Positions 7,767-34,443 of a stretch of DNA of 34,443 bases are shown here, piece by piece; position 1 is the stretch's first letter, and each line of letters opens with the position of its first letter. The stretch is taken from assembly GCA_018670095.1 (NCBI GenBank), contig JABHRR010000005.1, positions 1-34,443 on the forward strand. Direction: 5' to 3'. The position numbers and the translations under genes were made by a program. This DNA comes from Candidatus Woesearchaeota archaeon (GTDB lineage: Archaea; Nanobdellota; Nanobdellia; Woesearchaeales; GW2011-AR9). The notes under the pieces are model-generated. The model was not told the DNA's origin. It saw only the letters and a list, made by a program, of their open reading frames with translations, and searched no databases.

Positions 7767-8606
7767 TTAATCTTTATGTTCTATCTTGTTCTTATCTTTA
7801 AAATGAATCTCTTCTGCATTTTTTTTGGTTACTACTTTTTCGCCCAATCTTTTTTCAATCCGATCTTTGGCAACTTTTGCAGTTGCTCCACCTTCTTTAG
7901 CAATATCTTTACTTTCATCAAAATTAGAAGGATCTTCTTTTTCAGAGATTTCTTTAGTTGCCGCTTCCGCTAACATGTTCAAGACTAGTTCTATATTAGT
8001 CATGTTATCACGCAGATTCTCTTTCTTCAAACCCTTAAACTGCTTATAATCTTTGATTGTCTTTCCAGACCAGGCTTTAGTAATCTCGTTAGTTAAAATC
8101 GCAAAATCTTTTTTCTTATCAATTCCAACACGATTCCATTCATCAGTTAATTCCTTACGAACTTCAATAGTTTTCAATCTCTGATTTATCCAATCTTTAG
8201 AATAACCTTTTTGTAAATATGTCTTCATGGCTCTATCAATAGTTAACTCTGGATCAGACATTTCATCAATTCTCTCATTACCAACTTTTGCCAGCCACAT
8301 CTTAAACGGTTCTGCTTTCTTAGAAGGTATTGACTGAATTAAACGAAGTAATTGTTCAGTATCAGCTACATCAGTGTTGTAAAATTTGCCATCAGAAGAT
8401 TCTAATTTCAGTTGACTACAATTTGTAGCCAACTGGCTTCCCTCGGCTTTTAAACGAGTTTTAAGAACACTCCAGTATTTTCTGGGATTAGGACTTTCAG
8501 TAAGAATAGCGACAATATCAACTATTGAGAAATACCATTTTTCCTCATCTTCATCCCATTTAGTTCTTATTTTATGATGTTCAAAGAGTTTTATAGCATT
8601 GTTCAT
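7767..8606 (-). CDS. BRO-N domain protein (phage antirepressor type)
   Basis: This is a 279-residue protein. Residues about 1-110 resemble the BRO-N domain, a DNA-binding module found in phage antirepressors and baculovirus BRO proteins, with a characteristic segment around WYFSIVDIVAILTES (24-38) and a later LLRLIQSIPSKKAEPFKMWLA block. The rest is helical with basic stretches and may serve in DNA or partner binding. Such proteins are common in mobile or phage-derived regions and also as chromosomal genes of unknown role. The start fits a leaderless transcript: the TATA box at 8629-8637 lies about 27 nt upstream. The promoter shares a CACTGGTCA element with the homing-endonuclease gene. Confidence 0.7.
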   Translation of the reverse strand: MNNAIKLFEHHKIRTKWDEDEEKWYFSIVDIVAILTESPNPRKYWSVLKTRLKAEGSQLATNCSQLKLESSDGKFYNTDVADTEQLLRLIQSIPSKKAEPFKMWLAKVGNERIDEMSDPELTIDRAMKTYLQKGYSKDWINQRLKTIEVRKELTDEWNRVGIDKKKDFAILTNEITKAWSGKTIKDYKQFKGLKKENLRDNMTNIELVLNMLAEAATKEISEKEDPSNFDESKDIAKEGGATAKVAKDRIEKRLGEKVVTKKNAEEIHFKDKNKIEHKD

Positions 8607-12328: not shown

Positions 12329-13873
12329 CTAAAATTTTTCCAAACTCAACTGTCCTTTCCGCGTCCCTTTTGGAATTTCCTTTACTTCTAATCCCAATTG
12401 TTTGTAAACATCAACAGCGAGTTTGCTTCCCAAAATCTGGGCCAATGAAGTTAAATCAGTTCTCTTCAAATCACCTAAATCTTTCAATCCGTTTAGAACT
12501 AATTTTCTAGCACGAACACGACCGACCCCTTTCAACTTCAATAATGGAAGAAGTTCTTCTTTCACCCCATTCTTAACTCGAATTCTTAATTTGTGAATCT
12601 CTTTGATCAAATTATTACTCATCATACTTACTCTGGCTAATTCCGAAGAAGCATACAATAACCAGTCAGCAATTTCAATCTTTACTCTAATTTCTCCCGG
12701 ACGAATATCATAATTCTCTAACAAAAAATCCTCATTAGTTTCGTTAATCCAAGCATCAAAGAACAACGTTGTCTTAATAGAATTGATAAATTCATCATAT
12801 TCTAAGTCAAAAGCAGAAGGTTCATCTTGCAATAATTTATCATAATTCTTAACCAATTCTTCTTGAATTCTTTCTTGTTCTTTAGCTCTGACTCTCAGTA
12901 ACGGACGCATTTCTAACGTATGAGAAATAGTTTGTAAAATAGAAAAACTATCTTTCTCTTCATTAAATCGCTGTAAACAATCCAATAAATGTCTCGCCGT
13001 TAATGGATCTAAATACAATTCAGAAACTCTTTTCCCCAACAAAGTTGCTTTTAATTTTCTAATTTCCTGATTATCTTTATTTAAATCTTTAGCGACAATA
13101 AAATCGTCTTGAATCCTATCTGCACCAGAAATGGTTACAAATTTCCATTCATCTAATAACGCTAACATTTTGTCCATAATCATTTCTAATTTCTTAAAAT
13201 CTCGAAACTGAGATGCCCAGAATGTTTTTGAAAAGAATTCTTTCATGTTTTTCTCGTCAGTAATTATCCCTGAAGCAATTAATGAAAGTAAATAAGTCCT
13301 AAGAACCGGTTCGACTGCTAATTTGGAATAGATCTCTTCCGGTTCGCCTAAAATATAGCGATCGTAAATCTCTTCTTTATCTTTTTCATCTTTTGCGATC
13401 ATAATCGCTTCTCCAAAAGATTCAAATTCAGGTCTGCCTGCTCTGCCTGCCATTTGCATATATTCTAAAACCGGAATCCAATCCATCCCCCATTTACCAG
13501 AAAACCTTTTAAGAGATTTGATAATCACACGATAAGCAGGCAAAGACATCCCTGCCGCTAAAGTGGGAGTGCAACAGATAACTTTTATTTTCCCACTTCT
13601 AAACTCATCTTCAATCAAATCTTTTTGTTTCTGTACTAAACCAGCGTGATGAAAAGCAATTCCTTTCCTAACACAACGTGATAATCTTCTGCACTGTTTT
13701 GTTGATGAAGAAGCTGCTTTGAGAACCACTTCTTCCATTTCAGGATGTTGAAAATTTGTTAGTTTAGAAATCTCTTCAGCAGTTTTTTCTGCAGAAGCTC
13801 TAGATTGAACAAAAACTATTGCTTGTTTGTTTAGTTTAATAGTTTCTACTGCTAATCGCTGAATATCATCCAT
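12329..13873 (-). CDS. hel308: Hel308/Ski2-like helicase, C-terminal half only
   Basis: Hel308 helicases (about 700 residues) unwind DNA at stalled forks. This 514-residue protein begins at the second RecA domain: AIVFVQSRASAEKTA at 18-32 (motif IV), GIAFHHAGL at 71-79, TPTLAAGMSLPAYRVII at 102-118 (motif V) and QMAGRAGRP at 140-148 (motif VI). Winged-helix and ratchet regions follow, then a helix-hairpin-helix near KLKGVGRVRARKL. The first RecA domain with Walker A and Walker B (about 200 residues) is absent. An in-frame TGA lies 9 nt before the ATG, so the frame does not extend upstream. TTAATAAAT about 25-30 nt upstream could be its own TATA box. It is either one half of a split gene or a decayed copy, and alone it cannot hydrolyse ATP. 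Confidence 0.8.
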   Translation of the reverse strand: MDDIQRLAVETIKLNKQAIVFVQSRASAEKTAEEISKLTNFQHPEMEEVVLKAASSSTKQCRRLSRCVRKGIAFHHAGLVQKQKDLIEDEFRSGKIKVICCTPTLAAGMSLPAYRVIIKSLKRFSGKWGMDWIPVLEYMQMAGRAGRPEFESFGEAIMIAKDEKDKEEIYDRYILGEPEEIYSKLAVEPVLRTYLLSLIASGIITDEKNMKEFFSKTFWASQFRDFKKLEMIMDKMLALLDEWKFVTISGADRIQDDFIVAKDLNKDNQEIRKLKATLLGKRVSELYLDPLTARHLLDCLQRFNEEKDSFSILQTISHTLEMRPLLRVRAKEQERIQEELVKNYDKLLQDEPSAFDLEYDEFINSIKTTLFFDAWINETNEDFLLENYDIRPGEIRVKIEIADWLLYASSELARVSMMSNNLIKEIHKLRIRVKNGVKEELLPLLKLKGVGRVRARKLVLNGLKDLGDLKRTDLTSLAQILGSKLAVDVYKQLGLEVKEIPKGTRKGQLSLEKF

Positions 13874-13935: not shown

Positions 13936-14430
13936 TTACTTCTTTCTTCCTTTCGGAGCTTTGAACACGAACCAATCATCTTTAGTTATCGGATGAAAGT
14001 GATCTACTTCATTAATTAAAATACGAGCAGTTGTTTCTTTAACCGCGGCTATTTCTACTCTTACCCCTTCCGATTTCAAATGTCTTACCAGTTCCACGTA
14101 ATCTGAATCTCCAGACATGATAATGATTGAATCCACTTTGGAAGCTAGTTGTGTAGCTTTAATCGATAACGGAATGTCAGCAGATTTGTGACAGGGTATA
14201 ACTGAACCGTAATATTGATTGTGTAATCTTTCAGCAAGTTTGTCAGAAATATTTTTCCCTTCTCTGAAATAAATTAATCGATTCAAACCCCGATTACCTA
14301 ACAATTTTGGAATAAGTTTGTCAAAGTTGATCATTGCACTAGTATTCTTAGCAATATCATGAATACTTCTTTCGATATTGTTTCCATCACAGAGAATTGC
14401 TACAGATTGATTAATTAATAATTGTGTCAT
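13936..14430 (-). CDS. NYN-domain protein (LabA/DUF88-like, PIN fold)
   Basis: This 164-residue protein has the acidic residues of NYN/PIN-fold ribonucleases: LCDGNNIE at residues 13-20 (Asp15, Asn17), KSADIPLSIKA around 83-93, and MSGDSDYVELV about 104-114. Many LabA-like NYN proteins bind or cleave RNA, but the target is unknown. The start is supported by a GGGTGATG site on the minus strand at about 14436-14443. It is upstream of the helicase fragment on the same strand, separated by 62 nt. Confidence 0.75.
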   Translation of the reverse strand: MTQLLINQSVAILCDGNNIERSIHDIAKNTSAMINFDKLIPKLLGNRGLNRLIYFREGKNISDKLAERLHNQYYGSVIPCHKSADIPLSIKATQLASKVDSIIIMSGDSDYVELVRHLKSEGVRVEIAAVKETTARILINEVDHFHPITKDDWFVFKAPKGRKK

Positions 14431-23253: not shown

Positions 23254-23982
23254 ATGAATAAAATAAAACTTCCAAATCAAATGAGCCCATTGCTTGCAGA
23301 AGAGATTGGACTACATCTTGGAGATGGAAGTATGAATTATTACAAAAATAAAGGACTTTATCAATTAAGAGGGCATATTATCGATGACAGAGATCATTAT
23401 GATTTAAGAATTAAAACAATTTACAAAGAATTATTTGATCTTACTCTTAACTTAAGAGAAATGTCTTCTTGTGGGGTCTATGGGTTCCAAATTTGGTCCA
23501 ACAAGCTTGTTGATTACAAAAGCAAAATCCTCAATTTACCACTAGGTAAAAAAAATGATTTCTTAATCCCATTACAAATCGTTAGTAATAAAGAATTGTG
23601 TAAACATTTTCTTAGGGGATATTTTGATACTGATGGTTGCCTATATATAGAGAATAAAAAAGGTAAACCTTATCCAAGAGTTGAATTTGCTACCATTTCA
23701 CCTAAATTCACAAAACAACTTAAAGAAATACTTGTAATTCTTGAATTTAGGTTTTCTTTATATCGAGAAAAACGAAAAAAGTATGGTTGGAGTGATATTT
23801 ATCGTTTTAGAATAAATGGACATGAACAAACTAAAAAATGGTTCTTTGAGATAAAACCAAATAATCCAAAACACATCAAAAAATATTCTTCAATTACTCG
23901 ATATAATAAAAGTGGCGGGATATATAGGTTAAGGGTGTTTTTTACGCCTTTCCAATATATACTTTCGAGTGACCATAATTAA
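23254..23982 (+). CDS. Stand-alone LAGLIDADG homing endonuclease
   Basis: This 242-residue endonuclease contains two degenerate LAGLIDADG helices: LLAEEIGLHLGDGSM (about residues 13-27, with Asp24 the likely metal ligand) and HFLRGYFDTDGCL (about 118-130). Each is followed by the expected beta-sheet, so it probably acts as a monomer. Such enzymes cut long asymmetric sites and spread themselves or introns. No intein splice motifs or group I intron core surround it, so it is a free-standing gene. A GAGGTG site lies 7-8 nt before the ATG but is partly paired in a hairpin. The gene sits at the border of the nuclease-rich island. Confidence 0.82.
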   Translation: MNKIKLPNQMSPLLAEEIGLHLGDGSMNYYKNKGLYQLRGHIIDDRDHYDLRIKTIYKELFDLTLNLREMSSCGVYGFQIWSNKLVDYKSKILNLPLGKKNDFLIPLQIVSNKELCKHFLRGYFDTDGCLYIENKKGKPYPRVEFATISPKFTKQLKEILVILEFRFSLYREKRKKYGWSDIYRFRINGHEQTKKWFFEIKPNNPKHIKKYSSITRYNKSGGIYRLRVFFTPFQYILSSDHN

Positions 23983-24104: not shown

Positions 24105-25520
24105 ATGGAAGATAATATTGAATTTCAAAACAGGCAGTTTGATTTTGATAAATCAATTGGCAAACTGAGATTTTTCCAGTCTTCTGATAATACAATAGTT
24201 ACTTCATCAACATGGGGTTCTAATGAAGTTAAAATTTACAAAAATGATTGTGTTTTTATTCTTAATCCTGAAAATGAAGAAATAATAAGATATAACTTTA
24301 ATGATGAAGGGACTATTGATGAAAATACTGCCTACAAATTTATCCTACAAAATGGTTCATTAAAGAAGTGGGGTGGATCTTCTTCACAAAACTTAAACAT
24401 AAATACTTATTGGTTTAATAGTGAGGCAAAAGATAAAGAGGGGATGTATGAAGAAGATATAAAATATTCCGTGAAATATACCCCTGAAGAATTAAGAGAA
24501 TTTGTTAATAGTATTTTCAAAAATCTAACAAACCCTTGTTTTGAAATGACAACATTAATCCGATTCTTTAGAGATGGTGGAAAAACAGAGGATAAAAATA
24601 AAATAAATGATAATATTTACAGATATGTTCTTTTACCCAATAAAAAATATGATGATTTTAAACTTCCAGAAGATTCCGAGAGAAAACATATCAATACCAT
24701 AAAGAAAAAGGATGTAATAATATATGAGGACCATACAAAATATTATCCCCCAAAAAAATACTCACTAGATGCAAAAGAACGATTCAAACAAAATTTGGAT
24801 TGCTATCGAATATATCAAGGGACAATATTTTATGAAGAATATTTAAAAACAAAGAACAAAATCTCAATAAAGAATCTTATAAGCAAACCTGAAGAATTAA
24901 CATTTAAGGAATTTCTTCTTAATAATCAAACTAAAAAGCTGAGAAAAAGCAATAAGTTTGCAGAAGAATACGCATTTGGAACATTTCAAGAAGAGTATGA
25001 AAATAATAAACAAACATACAATGATGACCTGTCAGTAAAAGAATTATCAAAAGAGGAATATATTGAATGCTTGGAGAATACATTTTTTTTCTATAAAGAT
25101 TATTCTGAATTAAAGAAATGGATTGAAGAAACAAAAGTCAAAGAACCAAGAGGATATGGATTAACCATTGGAACTCACTTAGAACCAAATTTTAAAAGAT
25201 ACTTTTCAGTTAATGCAAGCGGATACTATTTCTACAAGGATATGGTTATAATGTTTTCTGTAGATGGTTACGGGGATGACTTTATCTATGAGTTTAAGAC
25301 ATGCATAGCACGAAGGGTTGAACATAATCTAAAATTTGCCCGAGAACAAGCAAATTTATATGCTCATTTAACAGGTAAAAAAATGATTATAATAGAAGTC
25401 TACTCTTATGAGGAGGATAGAATATATTATTATGAATTTCCTGTGGATGATAAGAAAGCAAATGAGCAACTTGAGAAATTCTACGAACGATATAAAGAGT
25501 ATCTTGATTCTTTAGCTTAG
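24105..25520 (+). CDS. RecB/Cas4-type PD-(D/E)XK nuclease domain protein
   Basis: This is a 471-residue protein with an unfamiliar N-terminal part (about residues 1-345, acidic and aromatic-rich). The C-terminal domain has RecB-family nuclease marks: His358 in IGTHLE, Asp387 in SVDGYGDD, Glu396 and Lys398 in YEFKT, then Gln415 and Tyr419 in REQANLY (motif QxxxY). This fits an active metal-dependent DNase. The N-terminal region may bind DNA or a partner. It has its own promoter (TATTTAAAAAAAATA near 24025) and is convergent with the five-gene nuclease-helicase operon, with only 12 nt between stop codons. It may belong to the same defence island but is regulated separately. Confidence 0.7.
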   Translation: MEDNIEFQNRQFDFDKSIGKLRFFQSSDNTIVTSSTWGSNEVKIYKNDCVFILNPENEEIIRYNFNDEGTIDENTAYKFILQNGSLKKWGGSSSQNLNINTYWFNSEAKDKEGMYEEDIKYSVKYTPEELREFVNSIFKNLTNPCFEMTTLIRFFRDGGKTEDKNKINDNIYRYVLLPNKKYDDFKLPEDSERKHINTIKKKDVIIYEDHTKYYPPKKYSLDAKERFKQNLDCYRIYQGTIFYEEYLKTKNKISIKNLISKPEELTFKEFLLNNQTKKLRKSNKFAEEYAFGTFQEEYENNKQTYNDDLSVKELSKEEYIECLENTFFFYKDYSELKKWIEETKVKEPRGYGLTIGTHLEPNFKRYFSVNASGYYFYKDMVIMFSVDGYGDDFIYEFKTCIARRVEHNLKFAREQANLYAHLTGKKMIIIEVYSYEEDRIYYYEFPVDDKKANEQLEKFYERYKEYLDSLA

Positions 25521-25532
25521 AAAACACCAGAT

Positions 25533-27230
25533 TTATTTAGATAAAATCTCTTTTTTCTTTTTATCATATAAGAAGTATTTAGACTTTAGAAGCCCTTTTA
25601 CACGTGCTAGGGCCCAAAAACTATTTTCATTGAACTCAACCCTGTTTTTCTTAATTACTTCCTTTAAATGAGAGTATTTGATGTTTTTTGTATCTATCTC
25701 TTTTAATCCTGTAACTAATTTTGATGTTCCCTCATCGCTCATCTCATTTTTAACAAATGTGAGACCCGTGAATTTACACTTTTCGATATATTTATTTGCA
25801 ACAGTCTTTCTACTCCCCGTTGTTTTAGAGACCTCATTTAATAAATAATATTCATTAGAAAAGATACATTTAGTAACTTCGTCTGGCTTAAAATAAGCAT
25901 TATGCTTTTTTGAGAAAATTGCATCCTTTTTATTTATTATATCTCCGAAATAGGTTTTAATTAAACACAATGGGCAAGTTCTTTTTCCAAGAACATCTTT
26001 TTTAAATAGGCTTTTATCAAAATATTTTTTACATGTTAAACATTGGTTATTTACTTCTTTCTTAATGAAATTACCAGTGATAATGCATTTTTCTACATTA
26101 TCTCTTTTGCATAAAAAACCCTTATCTTTTTCTTGATAAGTAGAACAAGAAGGGCAACAAAAATATCCGTTAATACTAATATTAAAACTATTAGGTGTTT
26201 TTTCACAGGTGGGACAAACATATTCTTGAATTGAATTTGAAAGAACATTGTAAGTTAAACTTACTTCTTCTCCCGATTGTGTTTCCTGTAAAATTAGTTT
26301 TTTCACATTATATTCAAAAACAATTGATCCAGAAAGATACACGTTGATATCAAAATCATATTGGTTTTTAATATCTTTAATACGAGATTCAGTATTTAAG
26401 AAATTTAAATTCGTTTTCGATTCATTTTCTTTTTTAAATTGCTCTAATTTTTCTTCAGAAGCTTTCAAACTATTTCTATATTCTCTTTCTTTTGGGATTG
26501 TTCTGGACGCTTTAATTCTTTCTCGCCAATACTTACACCTATCCTCTTGTTTGGAAACTTCCATTTTACATTCACGTTTAAACTCGTCATGTCTTGACTC
26601 CATCTCTTCAATTTGTTTATTAAGTAAAGCTTTGTTAACAATACCAGATTCTTCATATTTATTATTAAGATATTTTTCTAAGGTTTCGTATGCAACAGAA
26701 TGTGATTTTACAACATTATTTGGATTAAATTTGAATCTTGCTTCTTTAAAATCAAAATTATGAAATTCCGAAGATATTTCTTCAGGAAAAACAGTGCCGT
26801 TTTCATAATCTACTATCACAAATTTCAAAAATTCTGGTTGATTTTCATGAGTATTTGTAGAACTTACTTTGAACATGAAACATATTGCGATTTCTTTCTT
26901 TTCTTCTTGTTTTTTAATTTTTATTGTTTCTGGAAGATTTAATTTATCCTTTATTTTTACTGGAAAATCTAACACAGCTTTGACAATCTGTCCTTTATCC
27001 AAACTATCACGTAATAAAAATTTTGTTAAATCACTATGGATTGAAAGATAATCAACACCATGGTCATCTGAAATTTCTCGATTAAATGTAAACTTTCTTT
27101 CTATACCAAGTTTATTAGCTAAAACTTCTTTAAAATAAACTGTATGGATATTATTCTTATCTATACTAAACTTAATTTCATTTGATTCTAAATAATCTAG
27201 TACAAATTTCTTAATTGAGGATTGTTTCAT
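25533..27230 (-). CDS. Multi-zinc-finger partner of SNF2 helicase, unknown family
   Basis: This is a 565-residue protein. The N-terminal 180 residues (with DDHGVDYLSIHSDLTKFLL, 55-73) resemble, loosely, the region that follows the motor in large SNF2/RapA-type helicases. A long helical, coiled-coil segment covers about 200-290. From about 338 the chain is rich in metal-binding cysteines: CPTC (339-342), CCPSC (358-362), C374, CLTC (397-400) and CPLC (419-422). A small motif of the form KCxx[ST][GN]xx[FY] recurs at 381, 454 and 484. The start ATG overlaps the SNF2 stop as ATGA, so the two proteins are probably made in similar amounts. I infer a DNA-recognition or regulatory subunit of the helicase. 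Nothing in it looks like a nuclease. Confidence 0.65.
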   Translation of the reverse strand: MKQSSIKKFVLDYLESNEIKFSIDKNNIHTVYFKEVLANKLGIERKFTFNREISDDHGVDYLSIHSDLTKFLLRDSLDKGQIVKAVLDFPVKIKDKLNLPETIKIKKQEEKKEIAICFMFKVSSTNTHENQPEFLKFVIVDYENGTVFPEEISSEFHNFDFKEARFKFNPNNVVKSHSVAYETLEKYLNNKYEESGIVNKALLNKQIEEMESRHDEFKRECKMEVSKQEDRCKYWRERIKASRTIPKEREYRNSLKASEEKLEQFKKENESKTNLNFLNTESRIKDIKNQYDFDINVYLSGSIVFEYNVKKLILQETQSGEEVSLTYNVLSNSIQEYVCPTCEKTPNSFNISINGYFCCPSCSTYQEKDKGFLCKRDNVEKCIITGNFIKKEVNNQCLTCKKYFDKSLFKKDVLGKRTCPLCLIKTYFGDIINKKDAIFSKKHNAYFKPDEVTKCIFSNEYYLLNEVSKTTGSRKTVANKYIEKCKFTGLTFVKNEMSDEGTSKLVTGLKEIDTKNIKYSHLKEVIKKNRVEFNENSFWALARVKGLLKSKYFLYDKKKKEILSK

Positions 27231-28972
27231 TTTTTTACAACAGAGAGGTCAAATAAACTTAATGTTTTATCATCAAATGCTTTAACATCTTCTTGAAATT
27301 TTTTTGATTCTTTCACTTTTTTAAACAATTCATCTAACTTCTTCTTGAAATCAATTTTCTTTCTATTTTCCATTAACATTTCAAAAACAGTTTTTTCAAA
27401 TGAGGTTTCATCAACTACTTTAGTAATTATATCTGCCATTTCACCTATCGCCATGTGAAATAAATCAACTTTTTTGTATAACCTTTGTAAAATATACTCT
27501 TCTATTGTTCCTTTAACTGAAAGATTGTAAATGTTAACGTCAAACTCCTGCCCAATTCTGTGTATCCTGCCAATACGTTGCTCAACTCTCATTGGATTCC
27601 ACGGCAAATCATAATTTATTAAATTATGACAAAATTGGAGGTTTAAACCTTCACTTCCAGATTCAGTGCATATCAGAACGTCAATCTTTCCTCTCTTTAA
27701 TTTCTTAATAGAATATGACTTTTCTCCTGTGCTCATACCCCCTTTAATGATATCTACTTTGAATCCTTCTTTCTCAAGTCTATCCATCAATGCTAATTGA
27801 GTGTCCAGAAATTGTGTGAATATAATTACTTTTTCATTTATTTTCTTAACTAATTCTATTGCTGTTGTGAATTTATTATTCTCTGGAAGTTTATCATTTA
27901 TTTCCAATATCTGTTTTGCTTTTTCTTGATTCCCAAGTTCCAATTCATTTTTCTTAACGTATCTTCTTAGTGAATTTGCGAATGCATGACGACAACTACA
28001 TAACATTCTTGTTAAACTCATGAGTTGTAATGTTCCCACTCCTTTGAGTTGTGATTTTTTTTCATCCATTCCCTGATATTGCCCTTGGATGAAATCAATT
28101 GCTAAATCAGCTAAAGTGTTTTCTTCATTTGTTGCTTCTATTAATGTAGTGTAAACATTTCTTTTTGTAAAATCCAAACCAGTATCTTTCCTTGTATCAC
28201 GCTTCATAATTGATTTTAATTTATGATTTAGTGATTCTTGATTCATAATTTCTAATCCTTTGTTATCTGCAATGTAACTTCTTTTAAATTCGGATAGTGT
28301 TCCCAAAGAACCAGGATCTAACAAGTCTATAACATTATACAATTCTATCAAACTGTTTTGCATAGGTGTTGCAGTTAAAAAAAGACGATTCTGAGCTCTT
28401 ATTTTAGCCATTGCTTTGTAGGCTTTTGTTTTCTTATTTTTTAGCTTATGTGCCTCATCAATCAATAATAAATCCCATTGAATTGCTTCTATTTGTTGCA
28501 TATGTTTTGGTGATTTTGCAGTATCAATGGAAGCAATAATTTTATCGCACTTAGCCCAATTATGAACACTTTTATTAACCTCAAAATGTAATCTGAATTT
28601 ATCTCTCATCTCCTCTTGCCATTGTAATGTTAACGACGCGGGACACAAGATTAATACTGTTTTAACTTCTTCTCTTGCAATTAACTCTTTCATTATCATT
28701 CCAGCTTCAATTGTTTTTCCAAGTCCAACTTCATCTGCAATTAACATTCTCCCATTCATTTCATTTAGATATATCAAAGCTGTTTTCACTTGATGAGGAA
28801 AAAGAGTAATCTTTCCTTTAAGGTCTTCAATTATCATTAAATCTTCACGCTTACCTTTAAGAAGTAACATATTTGCCAGGTAATTCAATGAAAAATACTT
28901 TGGATTTTGAAATTTACCCTCTTTTAATTTACCTAAAATACTCTTTGAATCATAATAATTTATTTTAGTCAT
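27227..28972 (-). CDS. SNF2-family ATPase/helicase
   Basis: This 581-residue SF2 motor of the SNF2/RapA type moves along double-stranded DNA using ATP. Motifs in order are DEVGLGKTIEAG (residues 80-91, Walker A), LCPASLTLQW (109-118), IDEAH (171-175, Walker B), TATPMQN (200-206), a FTQFLDTQLALMDRL strand, TESGSEGLNLQFC, and QRIGRIHRIGQ (motif VI). It ends soon after the motor. Larger relatives such as RapA and DrmD continue with a C-terminal region, here possibly supplied by the next gene. The ATG lies inside the end of the Mrr gene (8-nt overlap), indicating translational coupling. SNF2 motors occur in DISARM, Zorya and Dpd defence systems. Confidence 0.92.
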   Translation of the reverse strand: MTKINYYDSKSILGKLKEGKFQNPKYFSLNYLANMLLLKGKREDLMIIEDLKGKITLFPHQVKTALIYLNEMNGRMLIADEVGLGKTIEAGMIMKELIAREEVKTVLILCPASLTLQWQEEMRDKFRLHFEVNKSVHNWAKCDKIIASIDTAKSPKHMQQIEAIQWDLLLIDEAHKLKNKKTKAYKAMAKIRAQNRLFLTATPMQNSLIELYNVIDLLDPGSLGTLSEFKRSYIADNKGLEIMNQESLNHKLKSIMKRDTRKDTGLDFTKRNVYTTLIEATNEENTLADLAIDFIQGQYQGMDEKKSQLKGVGTLQLMSLTRMLCSCRHAFANSLRRYVKKNELELGNQEKAKQILEINDKLPENNKFTTAIELVKKINEKVIIFTQFLDTQLALMDRLEKEGFKVDIIKGGMSTGEKSYSIKKLKRGKIDVLICTESGSEGLNLQFCHNLINYDLPWNPMRVEQRIGRIHRIGQEFDVNIYNLSVKGTIEEYILQRLYKKVDLFHMAIGEMADIITKVVDETSFEKTVFEMLMENRKKIDFKKKLDELFKKVKESKKFQEDVKAFDDKTLSLFDLSVVKK

Positions 28973-31304
28973 TTTGTTTTGCTTTTTTCAACAATTCTTT
29001 TAATTTGTTCCTTTCCCATAATTGAACTCCATTTTCCTTAGCTTCTTGTCTGGCATCAACTGAGAACTTCATGGCTGTTGTAAGAACAACTAAATGACTT
29101 GCTTTATATTTATCTTTCTTTGAGAAAACATCTCTTACCGCACTTACTCCAACTGTGGCCGATAATTGGTATCTTTTTGCTTGTATAAGTGTTATTTCAT
29201 CATTTCTTTTTAGTATCAAGTCAATACCGCCGTCTCTCGACCTTTTTGTTTTAGAAACCGTATAATTTAGTTTTTCAAATAGATTTTCAAGATATTCTTC
29301 AAATTCATCTCCAGACATATTATCAATCTCTTTAAGGTCGTTTACTAAATTAGCACTTAACTTTTTCACTGCTTGATTATAGAGAGTGTTAATATTTTCC
29401 CTAACAAATTCTTCGTTAGTTCCCCCAGTAGATTTTACAAGATAACTAATTAAATCTTTTAAATTTTCTTTATCTTTACCAAAAATTGAGATGTATACCT
29501 CAATATATTCTGGCCAAGATTCACAATCTTTTGCTTTCTCTTTGAATTTTTTAATGAATTCCTCATAAGATTTAGCTGATTTTTTTTGTATTATTGGTTT
29601 ACTATCAATTAGTGTTTTCTTTTCATTTAGAATAATTTCATCAATTGATTTTTCTTTCTCAAGAACTCTTTTTTCTACTTCTTTTATTTTTGAGATTTCT
29701 TTTTGAGATTCTTTTATTCTATCAAGAGATTTTTCTATAGTATTATTTATTACTTCTTTAGATTCTTCATAATCTTCTTTTAAACCAGTTAATTCAGTAT
29801 TCAGTTCTTCACCAGAATACTTCTTTTTTGCTTCTTTAACACTTTCTTGATATAATTTTTTTATTCTATTGGATTCTTTTCTTTTTTCCTCTGTAACAAT
29901 CTCTTTCTTTATCTTCTCTTTACTAAGTTCTATGTTTTGCTCATTTAACAAAGCTATTTCTCTTTCCAGTTTGATTTTTTCTTCTAATTTTTTAGAATAT
30001 ATATCATTTTTGTTGATAGTTTCTTTCTCAATTTGATCAATTGCTTTATTTAATCCTATTTCTTTATCTCTAAAATAATTTAAAATTTCGAGTTGTTTTT
30101 TTGATTTCTCTTCTTTGCTTATTTTTGATTTTTCTAATTCAGATAAAGCTTTCTCCTGTTCTTTAAATAATACTCTTTTCTCTTTCTTTATTTCTTGGAA
30201 ATCTTGAGAAAATTTTTTAATTGGAATTTTTAAGTTTGGACGATTCTTTTTTCTTTGGTTACGTTTGTATATCCAGAACATGGCAGAACCAAATAATATT
30301 AAGATTATAAAATTAAAGAATCCCCCTCCCGAACTGTTCTGGTTTTTAGACGCATTATCTGTTTTGTTTTCTACAGTTGTTTCTGGTTGAACTTTTTCTA
30401 TTGTTTTTTCCACTGCAGGAGAATTATTAATAATCACTTCTTGTTTAGTTTCAGGTATTGGTAGTAATTCTTCAGGCTCGATGGGAGCCATCTGCGAATC
30501 GTCAATTAACCCATCATCTAAGAATTTTTGTTTAGTTAAATCATAATTTGCGGATTCACCAAAATTAATATAATACATCTTAGGATTATTTGATTGAATT
30601 CCAATTGCCAAAGCATTGAGCATAGAATGTCCAAAACCACCATCCTCCCTAAAGTCAAAATCTTTTTCAAGATAAGCTGTAAAAGAACCCAGGATTAAAT
30701 TTAATTCATTGTCATCAATACAGGATTCAGTTTCAAAATCAATAAATTCGCCTTTTTCATTATATTCATATTGGTTGATGATTTTTCCTTCAATTTCTAA
30801 ATAATGGGGACCTTGTGCGTATCCTAAATCTCCATGATATGTTTGTATAACATAACACCCATTTTTTATTGGAATTGCAATTTCAAGAGGTTTTCTTAAT
30901 GTAAAAATAAATGATTTTAGAGAATCTCCTTCTTTGGTTCTAACCCTATTTTCATATGTTCCATTTTTAATCCACGCTGGATTAAAGTCCATGAAAGGGT
31001 CAGAAAGTGAATATTCTTCATTTGTAAATGAATTGTTGTTGTCACCATTTGAGGTACTAACATTTAAACCAATACATTGACCGTCTTTACAACCATCATT
31101 ACAAGGCATATAAAAAGCCCATATCTTTTCACAATTAGTTTTTTGAAATTCTTTCATTAATGCGTCTCCTTGACACTTTGTTTCTTCAAGGAACATAGAA
31201 GCACAAGTCTCTGACACACTACTAGCTAATATATTTGAAGGAAGAAGTAAAACAACTAAAATAAATAGCAAATAAATTTTTATAAGATTTTTTGACATTT
31301 TCAC
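28965..31304 (-). CDS. Membrane-anchored Mrr-type nuclease with extracytoplasmic domain
   Basis: This is a 779-residue protein of unusual architecture. Residues 1-27 form a signal peptide, followed by an extracytoplasmic region (about 28-325) with several Cys (34, 44, 58, 68, 72, 77, 150, 195), a Gly/Asn/Ser linker, one membrane helix at 329-346 and a long Lys/Glu-rich coiled coil (about 365-600). A C-terminal Mrr-type PD-(D/E)XK domain (about 660-775) carries RDGGIDLI (Asp695) and IQAK (Gln708, Lys710), the D-QxK triad of Mrr enzymes. The nuclease would face the cytoplasm, tethered to a sensor outside. The frame starts at GTG 31304; ATG 31298 is equally likely. It lies 2 nt after the upstream stop. 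Mrr enzymes cut modified or foreign DNA. Confidence 0.8.
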   Translation of the reverse strand: MKMSKNLIKIYLLFILVVLLLPSNILASSVSETCASMFLEETKCQGDALMKEFQKTNCEKIWAFYMPCNDGCKDGQCIGLNVSTSNGDNNNSFTNEEYSLSDPFMDFNPAWIKNGTYENRVRTKEGDSLKSFIFTLRKPLEIAIPIKNGCYVIQTYHGDLGYAQGPHYLEIEGKIINQYEYNEKGEFIDFETESCIDDNELNLILGSFTAYLEKDFDFREDGGFGHSMLNALAIGIQSNNPKMYYINFGESANYDLTKQKFLDDGLIDDSQMAPIEPEELLPIPETKQEVIINNSPAVEKTIEKVQPETTVENKTDNASKNQNSSGGGFFNFIILILFGSAMFWIYKRNQRKKNRPNLKIPIKKFSQDFQEIKKEKRVLFKEQEKALSELEKSKISKEEKSKKQLEILNYFRDKEIGLNKAIDQIEKETINKNDIYSKKLEEKIKLEREIALLNEQNIELSKEKIKKEIVTEEKRKESNRIKKLYQESVKEAKKKYSGEELNTELTGLKEDYEESKEVINNTIEKSLDRIKESQKEISKIKEVEKRVLEKEKSIDEIILNEKKTLIDSKPIIQKKSAKSYEEFIKKFKEKAKDCESWPEYIEVYISIFGKDKENLKDLISYLVKSTGGTNEEFVRENINTLYNQAVKKLSANLVNDLKEIDNMSGDEFEEYLENLFEKLNYTVSKTKRSRDGGIDLILKRNDEITLIQAKRYQLSATVGVSAVRDVFSKKDKYKASHLVVLTTAMKFSVDARQEAKENGVQLWERNKLKELLKKAKQND

Positions 31305-31306
31305 TT

Positions 31307-32743
31307 TTATTCTTTAATTAATTTATTTAATTCATCGACCATCCAAATCATAGCTTCTGTGTCTAATTCACAATATTTCAATAAATCTTTTCTTACTTTA
31401 GGATTTAACCCATCTTTAGTAAATAGAATACTAGCTGTTTCACCATCTGATATTTCTAAACCTTCATATCCTTTTCCTGTCATAGCTGGAAGAACTTTCT
31501 TTAAAGAACAGCTACCCTTTTGTTTAGGGTTGTAATAATCAAAATTTTGAAATGGAACAATTAAATCGACAATTCTCTTAATAATTCCATTAACCCATTT
31601 TTTATATTCTGGGAAAGCTTCAGCTAATTCTTTTAATCTTCCAATTTCAAATGATTGATAGAATACAATGATACTTCCAGAATCTCCTAGAACTTTCTTC
31701 ATTTCTTCTAACAAAATCTTTCTTTCGTCTCCGGGATTTGCTAGAAACTCATAATGCTTAATTTCTTTCCCGTCATCAACATGGAGACTAAACTGAAATG
31801 GGATTTGTTGGTATGACTTAGTGCCATCATAAAGAGGTATAGCTGTCGCAAACGTTTCAAAATCAAAGTAATACAAAGGATATTGTAAAGTTGCCAAGAA
31901 TCTCTTTATTTTGCCTTTATTTACATGGATTTCATTGTTAATATCACAATCTCGTTGAATGCCTTGTTTATCATTCAATTTGAAAGTTTCAGGAATATCA
32001 TTTAGATTTACAACACCATCCTCAAATAACTGGAATGATTTTGCTCCACCCCTGTATAAATCAAAAACACTTGCTTCAGGTAAAAAACCCCAACATTGGT
32101 CTTCTAAAGGGCAACCGTAAGGGTCTCTACAGTGTTTACCAATGTCAATATCTGGACAAACATCGGCTTTCATAATACTAAGTATATTAGAGATTTCTGT
32201 TTCAATTCCTTCAATTGCTAAATATACTTGTACTGTGATGTCTTCTTTTGTGAAAAATTCTTCTGGGTTAATTTCTCCCTTCTTAACAAATTTATTGTTG
32301 ATATGTAGTAGGAAGCATTTTCTTATTTTCAAACCAGCTTTTTCATAAACATGTTTTTGGAACGCAACATCATGAATATTTACTTCTTTAATTTTAGTTG
32401 CACTTTTAACTTCAATAATATCCCATTCGTCTTTTCCAACAGGAACAAGGATATCTGCTCTACTATAAAGATTATCAACCATAAAAGCAACTTCAAATAA
32501 AGGTTTCCTTTGTTTAATAAGTTCCTTACTTTTTTCTAGATTCTCTTTGAAATTTCCTTCAGGAATGTCAATACCTTCTGGGAATAATTTTTTAGCAAAC
32601 TGTCCGACTTTATGACCTTCGTCAAATCTTTGTTGTGTTACTAAACCATGTTCAGAAATTTTATTGGATTCATGTAACATAATCCAGAAGTATTTAGGGC
32701 ATTGAAGTCCGATTAAATATTTTGATTTGGATAGTAGTGCCAT
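31307..32743 (-). CDS. Cas4-like nuclease/DEDD exonuclease fusion (DUF2779 type)
   Basis: This is a 478-residue two-domain nuclease. The N-terminal half is Cas4/RecB-like: Asp97 in SRADILV, Glu111 and Lys113 in IIEVKSATK, and four cysteines (C15, C205, C211, C217) placed as in the iron-sulfur cluster of Cas4. The C-terminal half is a 3'-5' exonuclease of the RNase H/DEDD fold: YYFDFETF (Asp294, Glu296), a FYQSFEIGRL segment (361-370) and YCELDTEAM (457-465, Tyr457/Asp461). No CRISPR array or other cas genes are nearby. Its AGGAG ribosome site is formed by the last codons of hsdR, 6 nt upstream, so translation is probably coupled. Predicted to process DNA ends. Confidence 0.82.
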   Translation of the reverse strand: MALLSKSKYLIGLQCPKYFWIMLHESNKISEHGLVTQQRFDEGHKVGQFAKKLFPEGIDIPEGNFKENLEKSKELIKQRKPLFEVAFMVDNLYSRADILVPVGKDEWDIIEVKSATKIKEVNIHDVAFQKHVYEKAGLKIRKCFLLHINNKFVKKGEINPEEFFTKEDITVQVYLAIEGIETEISNILSIMKADVCPDIDIGKHCRDPYGCPLEDQCWGFLPEASVFDLYRGGAKSFQLFEDGVVNLNDIPETFKLNDKQGIQRDCDINNEIHVNKGKIKRFLATLQYPLYYFDFETFATAIPLYDGTKSYQQIPFQFSLHVDDGKEIKHYEFLANPGDERKILLEEMKKVLGDSGSIIVFYQSFEIGRLKELAEAFPEYKKWVNGIIKRIVDLIVPFQNFDYYNPKQKGSCSLKKVLPAMTGKGYEGLEISDGETASILFTKDGLNPKVRKDLLKYCELDTEAMIWMVDELNKLIKE

Positions 32744-32749
32744 TATAAC

Positions 32750-34443
32750 TTACTCCTTATTAGATATGTCAAAAAATCTATCAAAAAATCTGGTGAATTT
32801 TTCAAGAATATTCTCTCGCTTTTTAGTACGTTCGCCTGTTTTGGAAAAACGGGATCCTGGGGGCAAAACCTTAGTTATCGCTGTACCTGTTGTTGGTATA
32901 CTACCATCTCTGAATGCATTTTTTATAAATGTATATGTTTTCTCAGAATTAAGATTTTCTTCGCTAATAATTTTTTCTAATTCTTCAATTTTCTTTTTCT
33001 CTACAAAATTTTGCCAATCATCATCAACTACGGATTGCATATCAAGAGAATCAATAAATTGATCAATAAGATCTTTTTTATTACGTAATTCAAGACTTGA
33101 GTCTATTGCTTTGTTGATATCCATCAAAAGCTCTTTATCTTTGGTATTACTTTCATGAAATTTTTTGATTAAAGTAATAATATAATCAATATTAATTTCT
33201 ATTTGCTTGATAAGTTCCATTTCAAAAATAATATCATCATTAATATTTTCTTTCTCAGTATTTTTACTTTTTCTAAATTCATTATAAAGGTCTATATACA
33301 AACTATGATAATCCTGAATATCACGCTCAGTTAATAGTTCATTATCTATGAATTCGTCAAAAGTGGTCAAAATATTACGCACACGCAAAATACCACTATA
33401 AAGCTTAATAAAATCTTTTTGATTTTGCTCACCAAGTATTCTTTCTTCTATTGGGAATTTTTCTTGTAATTCTTTGACTAAAATTTTATATCCTTTCACA
33501 TTCTTTTTATTATCCTTATATCCATTGTAATACTCATCATAAGTTTTTAATAATACAATCCCACTTGCTTCTTTATCTCCAAAAAGTGAAAGAGATTTAT
33601 TCGTTGCTTCTTCCAAATTACGAAAGCAAACAATATTACCAAAAGTTTTTATGCTGTTTAAAATACGGTTAGTACGAGAGAATGCTTGAAGTAAGCCATG
33701 TAATCGTAAGTTTTTGTCTACCCATAAGGTGTTTAATGTGGTGGCATCAAATCCAGTTAAAAACATATTCACCACAATCAGAATATCTATCTCTCTGTCT
33801 TTTACTCGTTGGCTAACATCTTTATAGTAATTTTGAAACTTATCAGATGAGGTGTCATATGATGTACCAAACATTTTATTATAATCTTTGATGGCATTCT
33901 CTAAAAAGTCTCTCGAACTTGCAGTAAGTCCGCTTGTGTCTTCCGAGTTTTCATCAATAACTCCATCAACAGATTCTTCTTCATTTACACCAAAACTATA
34001 AATTGTTGCTACTTTGAGCTGTTTATCACTTGGTAAATCTTTAAGTTGTTTTTTGAATTCAGCATAATATTCTTTAGCCATATCGATAGATGAAACCGTA
34101 AAAATAGAATTAAATCCAGCTAAACGACGATCTTTAAGTTTATAATAACTATTTCTCTTTGTTTTTTGATCAAAATGTTCACGAATATATTTCACAATAT
34201 TTGTTAATCTTTTAGATCCAGAAAGTACTGCTTCCCTATCAATACTACTTATTTTTTTATCTTCAATGTTTTCTTCTTTTTTCATTGTGGAAACATAATC
34301 TACCCTAAATGGTAAAACATTCTTGTCAGCAATTGCATCTACAATAGTGTAAGTGTGTAATTTATCTCCAAAAGCTTGTTCTGTTGTTTTTAGGTCTACT
34401 CTTCCACCAGAAGATGAGTTAGCAGCAAAAATAGGAGTTCCTG
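32750..34443 (-). CDS. hsdR: Type I restriction enzyme R subunit (HsdR), partial
   Basis: This is the C-terminal part of the motor-nuclease subunit of a type I restriction system. The frame stays open to the window edge: residues encoded at 34286-34442 read GTPIFAANSSSGGRVDLKTT, then the conserved FGDKLHTYTIVDAI and NVLPFRVDYVSTM, typical HsdR sequence after motif III (TGTP). Further on are LTGFDATTLNTLWVDKNLR and LLQAFSRTNRI (motif VI). The nuclease domain and first motor lie outside the window. No hsdM or hsdS is in view, so they may be upstream or absent. It is the first visible gene of the five-gene operon, and its 3' end supplies the ribosome site of the next gene. The ATG at 34285 is internal. 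Confidence 0.93.
   Translation of the reverse strand, partial: GTPIFAANSSSGGRVDLKTTEQAFGDKLHTYTIVDAIADKNVLPFRVDYVSTMKKEENIEDKKISSIDREAVLSGSKRLTNIVKYIREHFDQKTKRNSYYKLKDRRLAGFNSIFTVSSIDMAKEYYAEFKKQLKDLPSDKQLKVATIYSFGVNEEESVDGVIDENSEDTSGLTASSRDFLENAIKDYNKMFGTSYDTSSDKFQNYYKDVSQRVKDREIDILIVVNMFLTGFDATTLNTLWVDKNLRLHGLLQAFSRTNRILNSIKTFGNIVCFRNLEEATNKSLSLFGDKEASGIVLLKTYDEYYNGYKDNKKNVKGYKILVKELQEKFPIEERILGEQNQKDFIKLYSGILRVRNILTTFDEFIDNELLTERDIQDYHSLYIDLYNEFRKSKNTEKENINDDIIFEMELIKQIEINIDYIITLIKKFHESNTKDKELLMDINKAIDSSLELRNKKDLIDQFIDSLDMQSVVDDDWQNFVEKKKIEELEKIISEENLNSEKTYTFIKNAFRDGSIPTTGTAITKVLPPGSRFSKTGERTKKRENILEKFTRFFDRFFDISNKE

What the first reader, a model, noticed from the sequence alone, without database searches (positions are those of the whole stretch)
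25533..34443. Five-gene operon HsdR / Cas4-DEDD / membrane Mrr / SNF2 / zinc-finger protein: candidate undescribed defence system
Five same-strand genes are joined by gaps of 6 and 2 nt and overlaps of 8 and 4 nt. Three are nuclease or restriction-type proteins, one is a DNA motor and one a probable recognition subunit. SNF2 motors and Mrr nucleases occur together in Zorya (ZorD) and SNF2 in DISARM, but ZorA/ZorB, DrmA/B/C, methylases, and cas genes are not visible. Tight coupling of the last three genes (Mrr, SNF2, zinc fingers) suggests a core module, with hsdR and the Cas4-like gene as neighbours or accessories.
Basis: partly seen in the sequence, partly recalled or inferred. Interest (0 to 1): 0.85.

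Follow-up and report, generated by a model that had tools for sequence, protein, structure and literature searches.

The report
Membrane Mrr nuclease with split-RapA motor
Three tightly coupled archaeal genes pair a two-piece DNA motor of the RapA type with an Mrr-family DNA-cutting enzyme, here anchored in the cell membrane; the same partnership recurs in salt-loving archaea, and it looks like a DNA-restriction (defence) module that no catalogue we could search names.

Summary
All five genes are present at the stated positions. They are not one system. The last three, membrane-anchored Mrr nuclease, short SNF2 motor and coiled-coil/zinc protein, form the real unit. It recurs intact, with 8-nt overlaps, in a second genome of the same order (G380), near an integrase/tRNA-Pro and without hsdR or Cas4. 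An SNF2-zinc-Mrr version with 4-nt Zn/Mrr overlaps occurs on three haloarchaeal plasmids.

The SNF2/zinc pair is a diverged YqhH-YqhG pair: 110 of 118 related SNF2 genes are paired with a YqhG-like partner, and a YqhG model matches E. coli RapA. It is therefore probably a split RapA-type motor, and Mrr is what was added.

hsdR is a truncated Type I R subunit at the contig end, with no HsdS and no convincing HsdM elsewhere in the 84%-complete assembly. The Cas4-DEDD gene is an exchangeable gene in 76 of 343 genomes of the phylum.

PADLOC has no model for the zinc protein; tested defining parts of Zorya, DISARM and BR/Hma are absent. Best reading: a restriction-type defence module (probability about 0.55), a new variant of the SNF2-plus-nuclease kind. 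No activity has been shown, and the intact triplet is known from two genomes of this phylum.

The parts
28965..31304 (-). Membrane-anchored Mrr nuclease, 779 aa: signal-like segment (12-30), ectodomain, TM (327-345), long Lys/Glu-rich segment read as coiled coil, Mrr_cat domain (660-772) with D...QAK motif
   Evidence: Pfam Mrr_cat 4.6e-28; hydropathy; 30% identical relative in G380 with LamG ectodomain, TM and intact motif
27227..28972 (-). Short SNF2 (YqhH/HepA-type) translocase, 581 aa, Walker A DEVGLGKT and DEAH box intact; overlaps Mrr by 8 nt
   Evidence: nearest PDB relatives are a Snf2/Rad54-family helicase (1z63) and RapA; tree
25533..27230 (-). Zinc protein, 565 aa: YqhG-like N-terminal region, coiled coil (170-291), beta region, cysteine-rich region from residue 339 (16 Cys in all, 4 CxxC), poorly predicted C-terminus; overlaps SNF2 by 4 nt
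   Evidence: homology of YqhG and partner profiles, hhalign 98.9%, E 1.3e-17; AlphaFold pLDDT 82.9; Cys counts
31307..32743 (-). Cas4-DEDD (DUF2779) protein, 478 aa: adjoining, exchangeable gene, probably not part of the core
   Evidence: present in 76 of 343 genomes of the phylum, near various restriction-type genes; absent from the G380 locus
32750..34441 (-). C-terminal part (563 aa) of a Type I restriction R subunit (EcoR124 type), cut by the contig end; separate system
   Evidence: PADLOC REase_I 5.8e-174 to profile 406-973; contig ends at 34443; no HsdS and only a weak N6-MTase match in the assembly

Best explanation
A three-gene restriction-type module. The SNF2 protein and the zinc protein together rebuild a RapA-type motor split over two chains: SNF2 supplies the ATPase, the YqhG-like protein the accessory half plus a coiled coil and zinc-binding modules that probably choose the substrate. 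The motor moves on DNA and brings it to the Mrr nuclease, which cuts it. Here the Mrr is tethered in the cell membrane with a domain outside and the nuclease inside, so DNA would be inspected at or near its point of entry. Shown by computation: homology, domain make-up, conserved gene coupling, predicted topology, recurrence. Inferred: complex formation, DNA translocation, cutting, action against viruses or plasmids, and what marks the target.
For: Intact triplet in G380 with 8-nt overlaps at both junctions. SNF2-zinc-Mrr operons in Halorhabdus, Halocatena and Haloferax plasmids with 4-nt Zn/Mrr overlaps. Both membrane Mrr proteins keep signal segment, TM and D...QAK motif while their ectodomains differ. 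SNF2 and partner are paired in 110 of 118 loci; the YqhG profile matches the partner profile; a YqhG model matches RapA. Restriction-type or mobile contexts: hsdR/Cas4 here, integrase beside tRNA-Pro in G380, plasmids in haloarchaea. Other RapA-like motors serve defence (BrxHII and BR/Hma helicases, PMC12839542; ArmA, PMC12458937).
Against: No activity data. Only two genomes of about 370 sampled in the phylum hold the triplet. The Mrr-free pair sits beside ordinary genes in most related genomes and is a chromosomal gene pair in Bacillus, where YqhH is linked to UV survival and RNA polymerase (PMC10054049, PMC7385302), so repair is possible. Mrr motifs look degenerate in Halorhabdus and Haloferax. 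Gene order differs between the two groups, and the tree allows two separate Mrr recruitments. Self/non-self discrimination is unexplained.
Confidence: 0.55

Rival explanations
1. DNA repair or RNA-polymerase clearing. The SNF2/zinc pair does what YqhH/RapA does (clears stalled polymerase or remodels DNA), and Mrr cuts damaged or blocked DNA of the cell itself.
For: YqhG model matches RapA; B. subtilis YqhH is also called HepA/RapA and listed as RNAP-interacting (PMC7385302); B. thuringiensis yqhH knockout is UV-sensitive (PMC10054049); Mrr-free pairs lie beside housekeeping genes in related genomes.
Against: The Mrr-linked forms are rare and lie on plasmids, near an integrase or near hsdR; a membrane tether and variable ectodomain fit repair poorly.
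Confidence: 0.2
2. DNA uptake and digestion at the cell surface: the ectodomain touches a partner cell or surface sugars, and the cytoplasmic Mrr and motor break down imported DNA for nucleotides in a small-genome symbiont.
For: Predicted topology with an outside domain, a LamG (lectin-like) ectodomain in G380, genome of only 1.2 Mb.
Against: Haloarchaeal versions have no TM or signal segment; no import channel is encoded in the operon; rare in the phylum.
Confidence: 0.1
3. One five-gene system in which hsdR and Cas4-DEDD are working parts.
For: Gaps of only 6 and 2 nt on one strand.
Against: The G380 locus and the haloarchaeal loci show neither gene beside the module; Cas4-DEDD is common without the module; hsdR is a Type I R subunit with its own expected partners.
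Confidence: 0.08
4. Chance adjacency: a stray Mrr gene next to a housekeeping SNF2/YqhG pair.
For: The pair usually occurs without Mrr.
Against: Overlapping reading frames in two genomes of different families and a second arrangement in three haloarchaea.
Confidence: 0.05

Closest known systems
YqhH-YqhG gene pair (HepA/RapA-like helicase plus PF11079) of Bacillus and relatives
   Same: Short SNF2 protein followed by a YqhG-like partner; homology by profile and gene order
   Different: No Mrr, no zinc region in YqhG proper, chromosomal; function of YqhG unknown
RapA of Escherichia coli
   Same: SNF2 motor; YqhG model aligns to RapA structures with E 7e-6 to 1.5e-5
   Different: One chain, bacterial RNA-polymerase recycling factor, no nuclease
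Zorya (ZorD: SNF2 plus Mrr-like nuclease)
   Same: SNF2 motor, Mrr-like nuclease and a membrane link; Mrr domain matches ZorD at 2.6e-19
   Different: ZorD is one protein and the membrane part is the ZorA/ZorB motor; no MotA/ZorA-type gene found in this assembly
DUF499-centred BREX-related (BR/Hma) systems
   Same: RapA-like SNF2 motor with nuclease; short-partner relatives of the pair lie beside DUF499/DUF1156 genes on haloarchaeal plasmids
   Different: No DUF499 in this assembly and no DUF1156 methylase seen among the window proteins scanned
DISARM (DrmD)
   Same: SNF2 resembles DrmD (NCBIfam 302 bits)
   Different: Far below the DrmD cut-off of 610; no DrmB, DrmC or methylase among the searched window proteins
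Type IV restriction enzymes (Mrr)
   Same: Mrr_cat domain with D...QAK motif
   Different: Known Mrr acts without an SNF2/YqhG motor (own knowledge); this one is fused to a membrane anchor

Membership tests
Zorya | ZorA/ZorB membrane motor (MotA/MotB-like) | tested here: not met
   No PF01618 match in the 84%-complete assembly; control rings in 8 genomes; MotB/ZorB not searched
Zorya | SNF2 and Mrr in one ZorD chain | tested here: not met
   Two separate genes; SNF2 scores 108 bits against a ZorD cut-off of 1500
DISARM | DrmD equivalog | tested here: not met
   302 bits against a cut-off of 610
DISARM | DrmA/DrmB/DrmC and methylase | tested here: not met
   17 window proteins scanned with PADLOC show no DrmB or DrmC; SNF2 hits to DrmA/DrmD are shared helicase matches. 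Not searched in the whole genome
BR/Hma | DUF499 ATPase | tested here: not met
   No PF04465 match in the assembly; control rings in Thermotoga only
Type I restriction-modification | HsdR | tested here: met
   C-terminal 563 aa, 5.8e-174; applies to the neighbour, not to the core
Type I restriction-modification | HsdM and HsdS | tested here: inconclusive
   No HsdS; one N6-MTase match of 21 bits on another contig; the contig ends inside hsdR and the assembly is 84% complete
YqhH-YqhG pair | Short SNF2 followed by YqhG homologue | tested here: met
   hhalign 98.9%, E 1.3e-17 between family profiles; tree and gene order. The window protein itself gets no PF11079 match at E 0.01
RapA-type motor | Accessory half with RapA fold | tested here: inconclusive
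   YqhG model matches RapA; the window zinc protein model has no PDB match with E below 0.001
Any PADLOC-named system | Models for all three core genes | tested here: not met
   Zinc protein: one weak SduA match (1.2e-4); other two match only at domain level. DefenseFinder not available
Anti-phage defence | Protection against phage or plasmid | not testable with these tools
   Needs an experiment

The most novel reading that the evidence does not exclude
An undescribed archaeal defence system in which a split RapA-type motor with expandable zinc modules (4 to 48 CxxC motifs) hands DNA to an Mrr nuclease, with a lineage in which the nuclease is built into the membrane and carries an interchangeable ectodomain, restricting DNA at the point of entry.
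Probability: 0.35. Interest if true: 0.8.

Novelty: new variant of a known kind. Interest (0 to 1): 0.6.

Why it matters
It joins an uncharacterised, very widespread gene pair (YqhH-YqhG) to RapA by structure and shows archaea coupling that pair to a nuclease. This gives a testable function for PF11079, a concrete membrane-tethered nuclease to compare with Zorya, and a candidate defence module for genomes of the small symbiont type.

Tried and rejected
Collection scans with the zinc protein alone found nothing; the one G046 match covers only the C-terminal 118 residues and was not followed further. Shared ancestry of the C-terminal domains of the long zinc proteins looked likely by eye but was not supported (best hits were shuffled sequences; hhalign probability 0.1%). 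The window zinc model gave no PDB match. A viral-contig scan returned SNF2 relatives at 26-46% identity, none as close as the cellular YqhH-type loci (their partners were not checked). No att repeat of tRNA-Pro was found in the 14.4-kb G380 contig stretch, so an integrated element is not shown. Related Mrr proteins in other genomes of the phylum lack SNF2/partner neighbours in the fetched stretches; some have TM segments of other layouts. Archaeal 16S was not found in the assembly, so assignment to DPANN archaea is inference from gene content (PAC2, Hel308 domain) and the SNF2 tree.

Full report
Observation. Five minus-strand ORFs are present with the stated coordinates and spacing. Pfam, NCBIfam and PADLOC give a Type I R subunit C-terminal part, DUF2779 with a weak Cas4 match, Mrr_cat, SNF2/Helicase_C, and no significant family for the 565-residue zinc protein. 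The assembly has no HsdS match, one weak N6-methylase match on another contig, no MotA/ZorA-type match and no DUF499.

The core recurs. A search of 371 genomes of the phylum with the SNF2 protein found 22 with matches at 1e-60 or better. The closest, G380 (51% identity, another family of the same order), has Mrr (657 aa), SNF2 and zinc protein in the same order with 8-nt overlaps at both junctions (L033 7819-9792, 9785-11548, 11541-13235). hsdR and Cas4-DEDD are not in that stretch. A phage-type integrase gene lies directly after a tRNA-Pro, about 4 kb before the module; no att repeat was found. The two Mrr proteins share signal segment, TM and catalytic D...QAK motif, while the outside domains differ: LamG in G380, no recognised domain here.

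Haloarchaea. Plasmid searches led to SNF2 proteins of about 580-595 aa in haloarchaea. In Halorhabdus (L003), Halocatena (L005) and Haloferax (L008) these are followed by long zinc proteins of 1095, 676 and 1245 aa (38, 16 and 48 CxxC motifs) and then by an Mrr gene whose start overlaps the zinc gene by 4 nt; in L003 and L005 this uses an in-frame start upstream of the annotated one. L003 and L008 share a further downstream gene and a divergent helicase pair. These Mrr proteins have no TM; the catalytic motif looks intact in L005 and degenerate in L003 and L008 by inspection of the alignment. Haloarchaeal relatives with short partners (about 390 aa) show no Mrr and often lie beside DUF499, DUF1156 or PD-(D/E)XK/UvrD genes.

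What the pair is. Among 118 related SNF2 genes in the fetched loci, 110 have a partner-profile match next to them; several of the other eight are fused, cut by contig ends or distant. The set was gathered by SNF2 similarity, so it is not a random sample. In Bacillaceae the partner is YqhG (PF11079, 3e-127). YqhG and the archaeal partner profiles align over their length (hhalign 98.9%, E 1.3e-17), although coiled-coil content may add to the score. An AlphaFold model of YqhG (pLDDT 94) finds E. coli RapA as its four best PDB matches (E 7e-6 to 1.5e-5, probability 1.00, TM about 0.35 by query length). The next match is at 0.17. I read this as a RapA motor split over two genes. The window protein model (pLDDT 82.9) gave no significant PDB match, so for it the link runs through the profile comparison.

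Evolution. In an SNF2 tree the five Mrr-linked sequences form two supported groups, window+G380 (100) and the three haloarchaea (98), each next to Mrr-free relatives within one archaeal group (97); the Mrr label needs two changes. Two recruitments or one origin with two losses fit equally well. The tree was a quick one with several long branches.

Neighbours. Cas4-DEDD occurs in 76 of 343 genomes of the phylum, mostly at 39-66% identity. Among 20 fetched loci, several place it beside restriction-type or DUF262-like genes (most of these labels are my reading of the sequence, a few were checked by Pfam). It is best seen as an exchangeable gene. hsdR belongs to a Type I system whose other genes are not in the assembly.

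Function. Published data on the pair come from Bacillus: YqhH is grouped with RNAP-interacting helicases (PMC7385302), and its knockout in B. thuringiensis lowers UV survival (PMC10054049). RapA-like motors are also used in defence: BrxHII and BR/Hma helicases (PMC12839542), ArmA of ARMADA (PMC12458937). The added Mrr, the plasmid/integrase/hsdR contexts and the membrane tether favour restriction of incoming DNA, but repair remains open. I put restriction-type defence at 0.55.

Novelty. No PADLOC (2023) or NCBIfam (2026) model covers the zinc protein or the set, and the paper searches gave no description of it. The library lacks most subscription papers, and DefenseFinder could not be run. I file it as a new variant of the SNF2-plus-nuclease kind, not as a member of Zorya, DISARM or BR/Hma.

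Noticed in passing
L003 11305-14592, L005 8798-10828, L008 8671-12408: Haloarchaeal zinc proteins with 38, 16 and 48 CxxC motifs in long, regularly spaced cysteine arrays; array length differs greatly between relatives.
   Followed up: partly
window 24105-25520 (+): 471-aa protein convergent with the zinc gene; no Pfam family, weak DpdC match (7e-4), C-terminal D...EFK-like motif by eye suggesting a PD-(D/E)XK nuclease.
   Followed up: no
window 7767-8606 (-): BRO-N protein with a strong match (444 bits) to PADLOC candidate PDC-S13, about 17 kb from the module.
   Followed up: no
window 12329-13873 and 13936-14430 (-): Hel308-type archaeal helicase C-terminal part with a separate 164-aa ORF upstream; possibly a split or frameshifted gene.
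   Followed up: no
L041-L051: One family of the class (f105) carries the SNF2+partner pair without Mrr in many genomes, often with zinc motifs in the partner.
   Followed up: partly
L129 3756-7190: Single-chain SNF2 protein matching RapA_C (9e-5) and the partner profile (E 0.0016), a possible fused form of the pair.
   Followed up: partly
window 23254-23982 (+): LAGLIDADG-domain protein near the convergent 471-aa gene.
   Followed up: no
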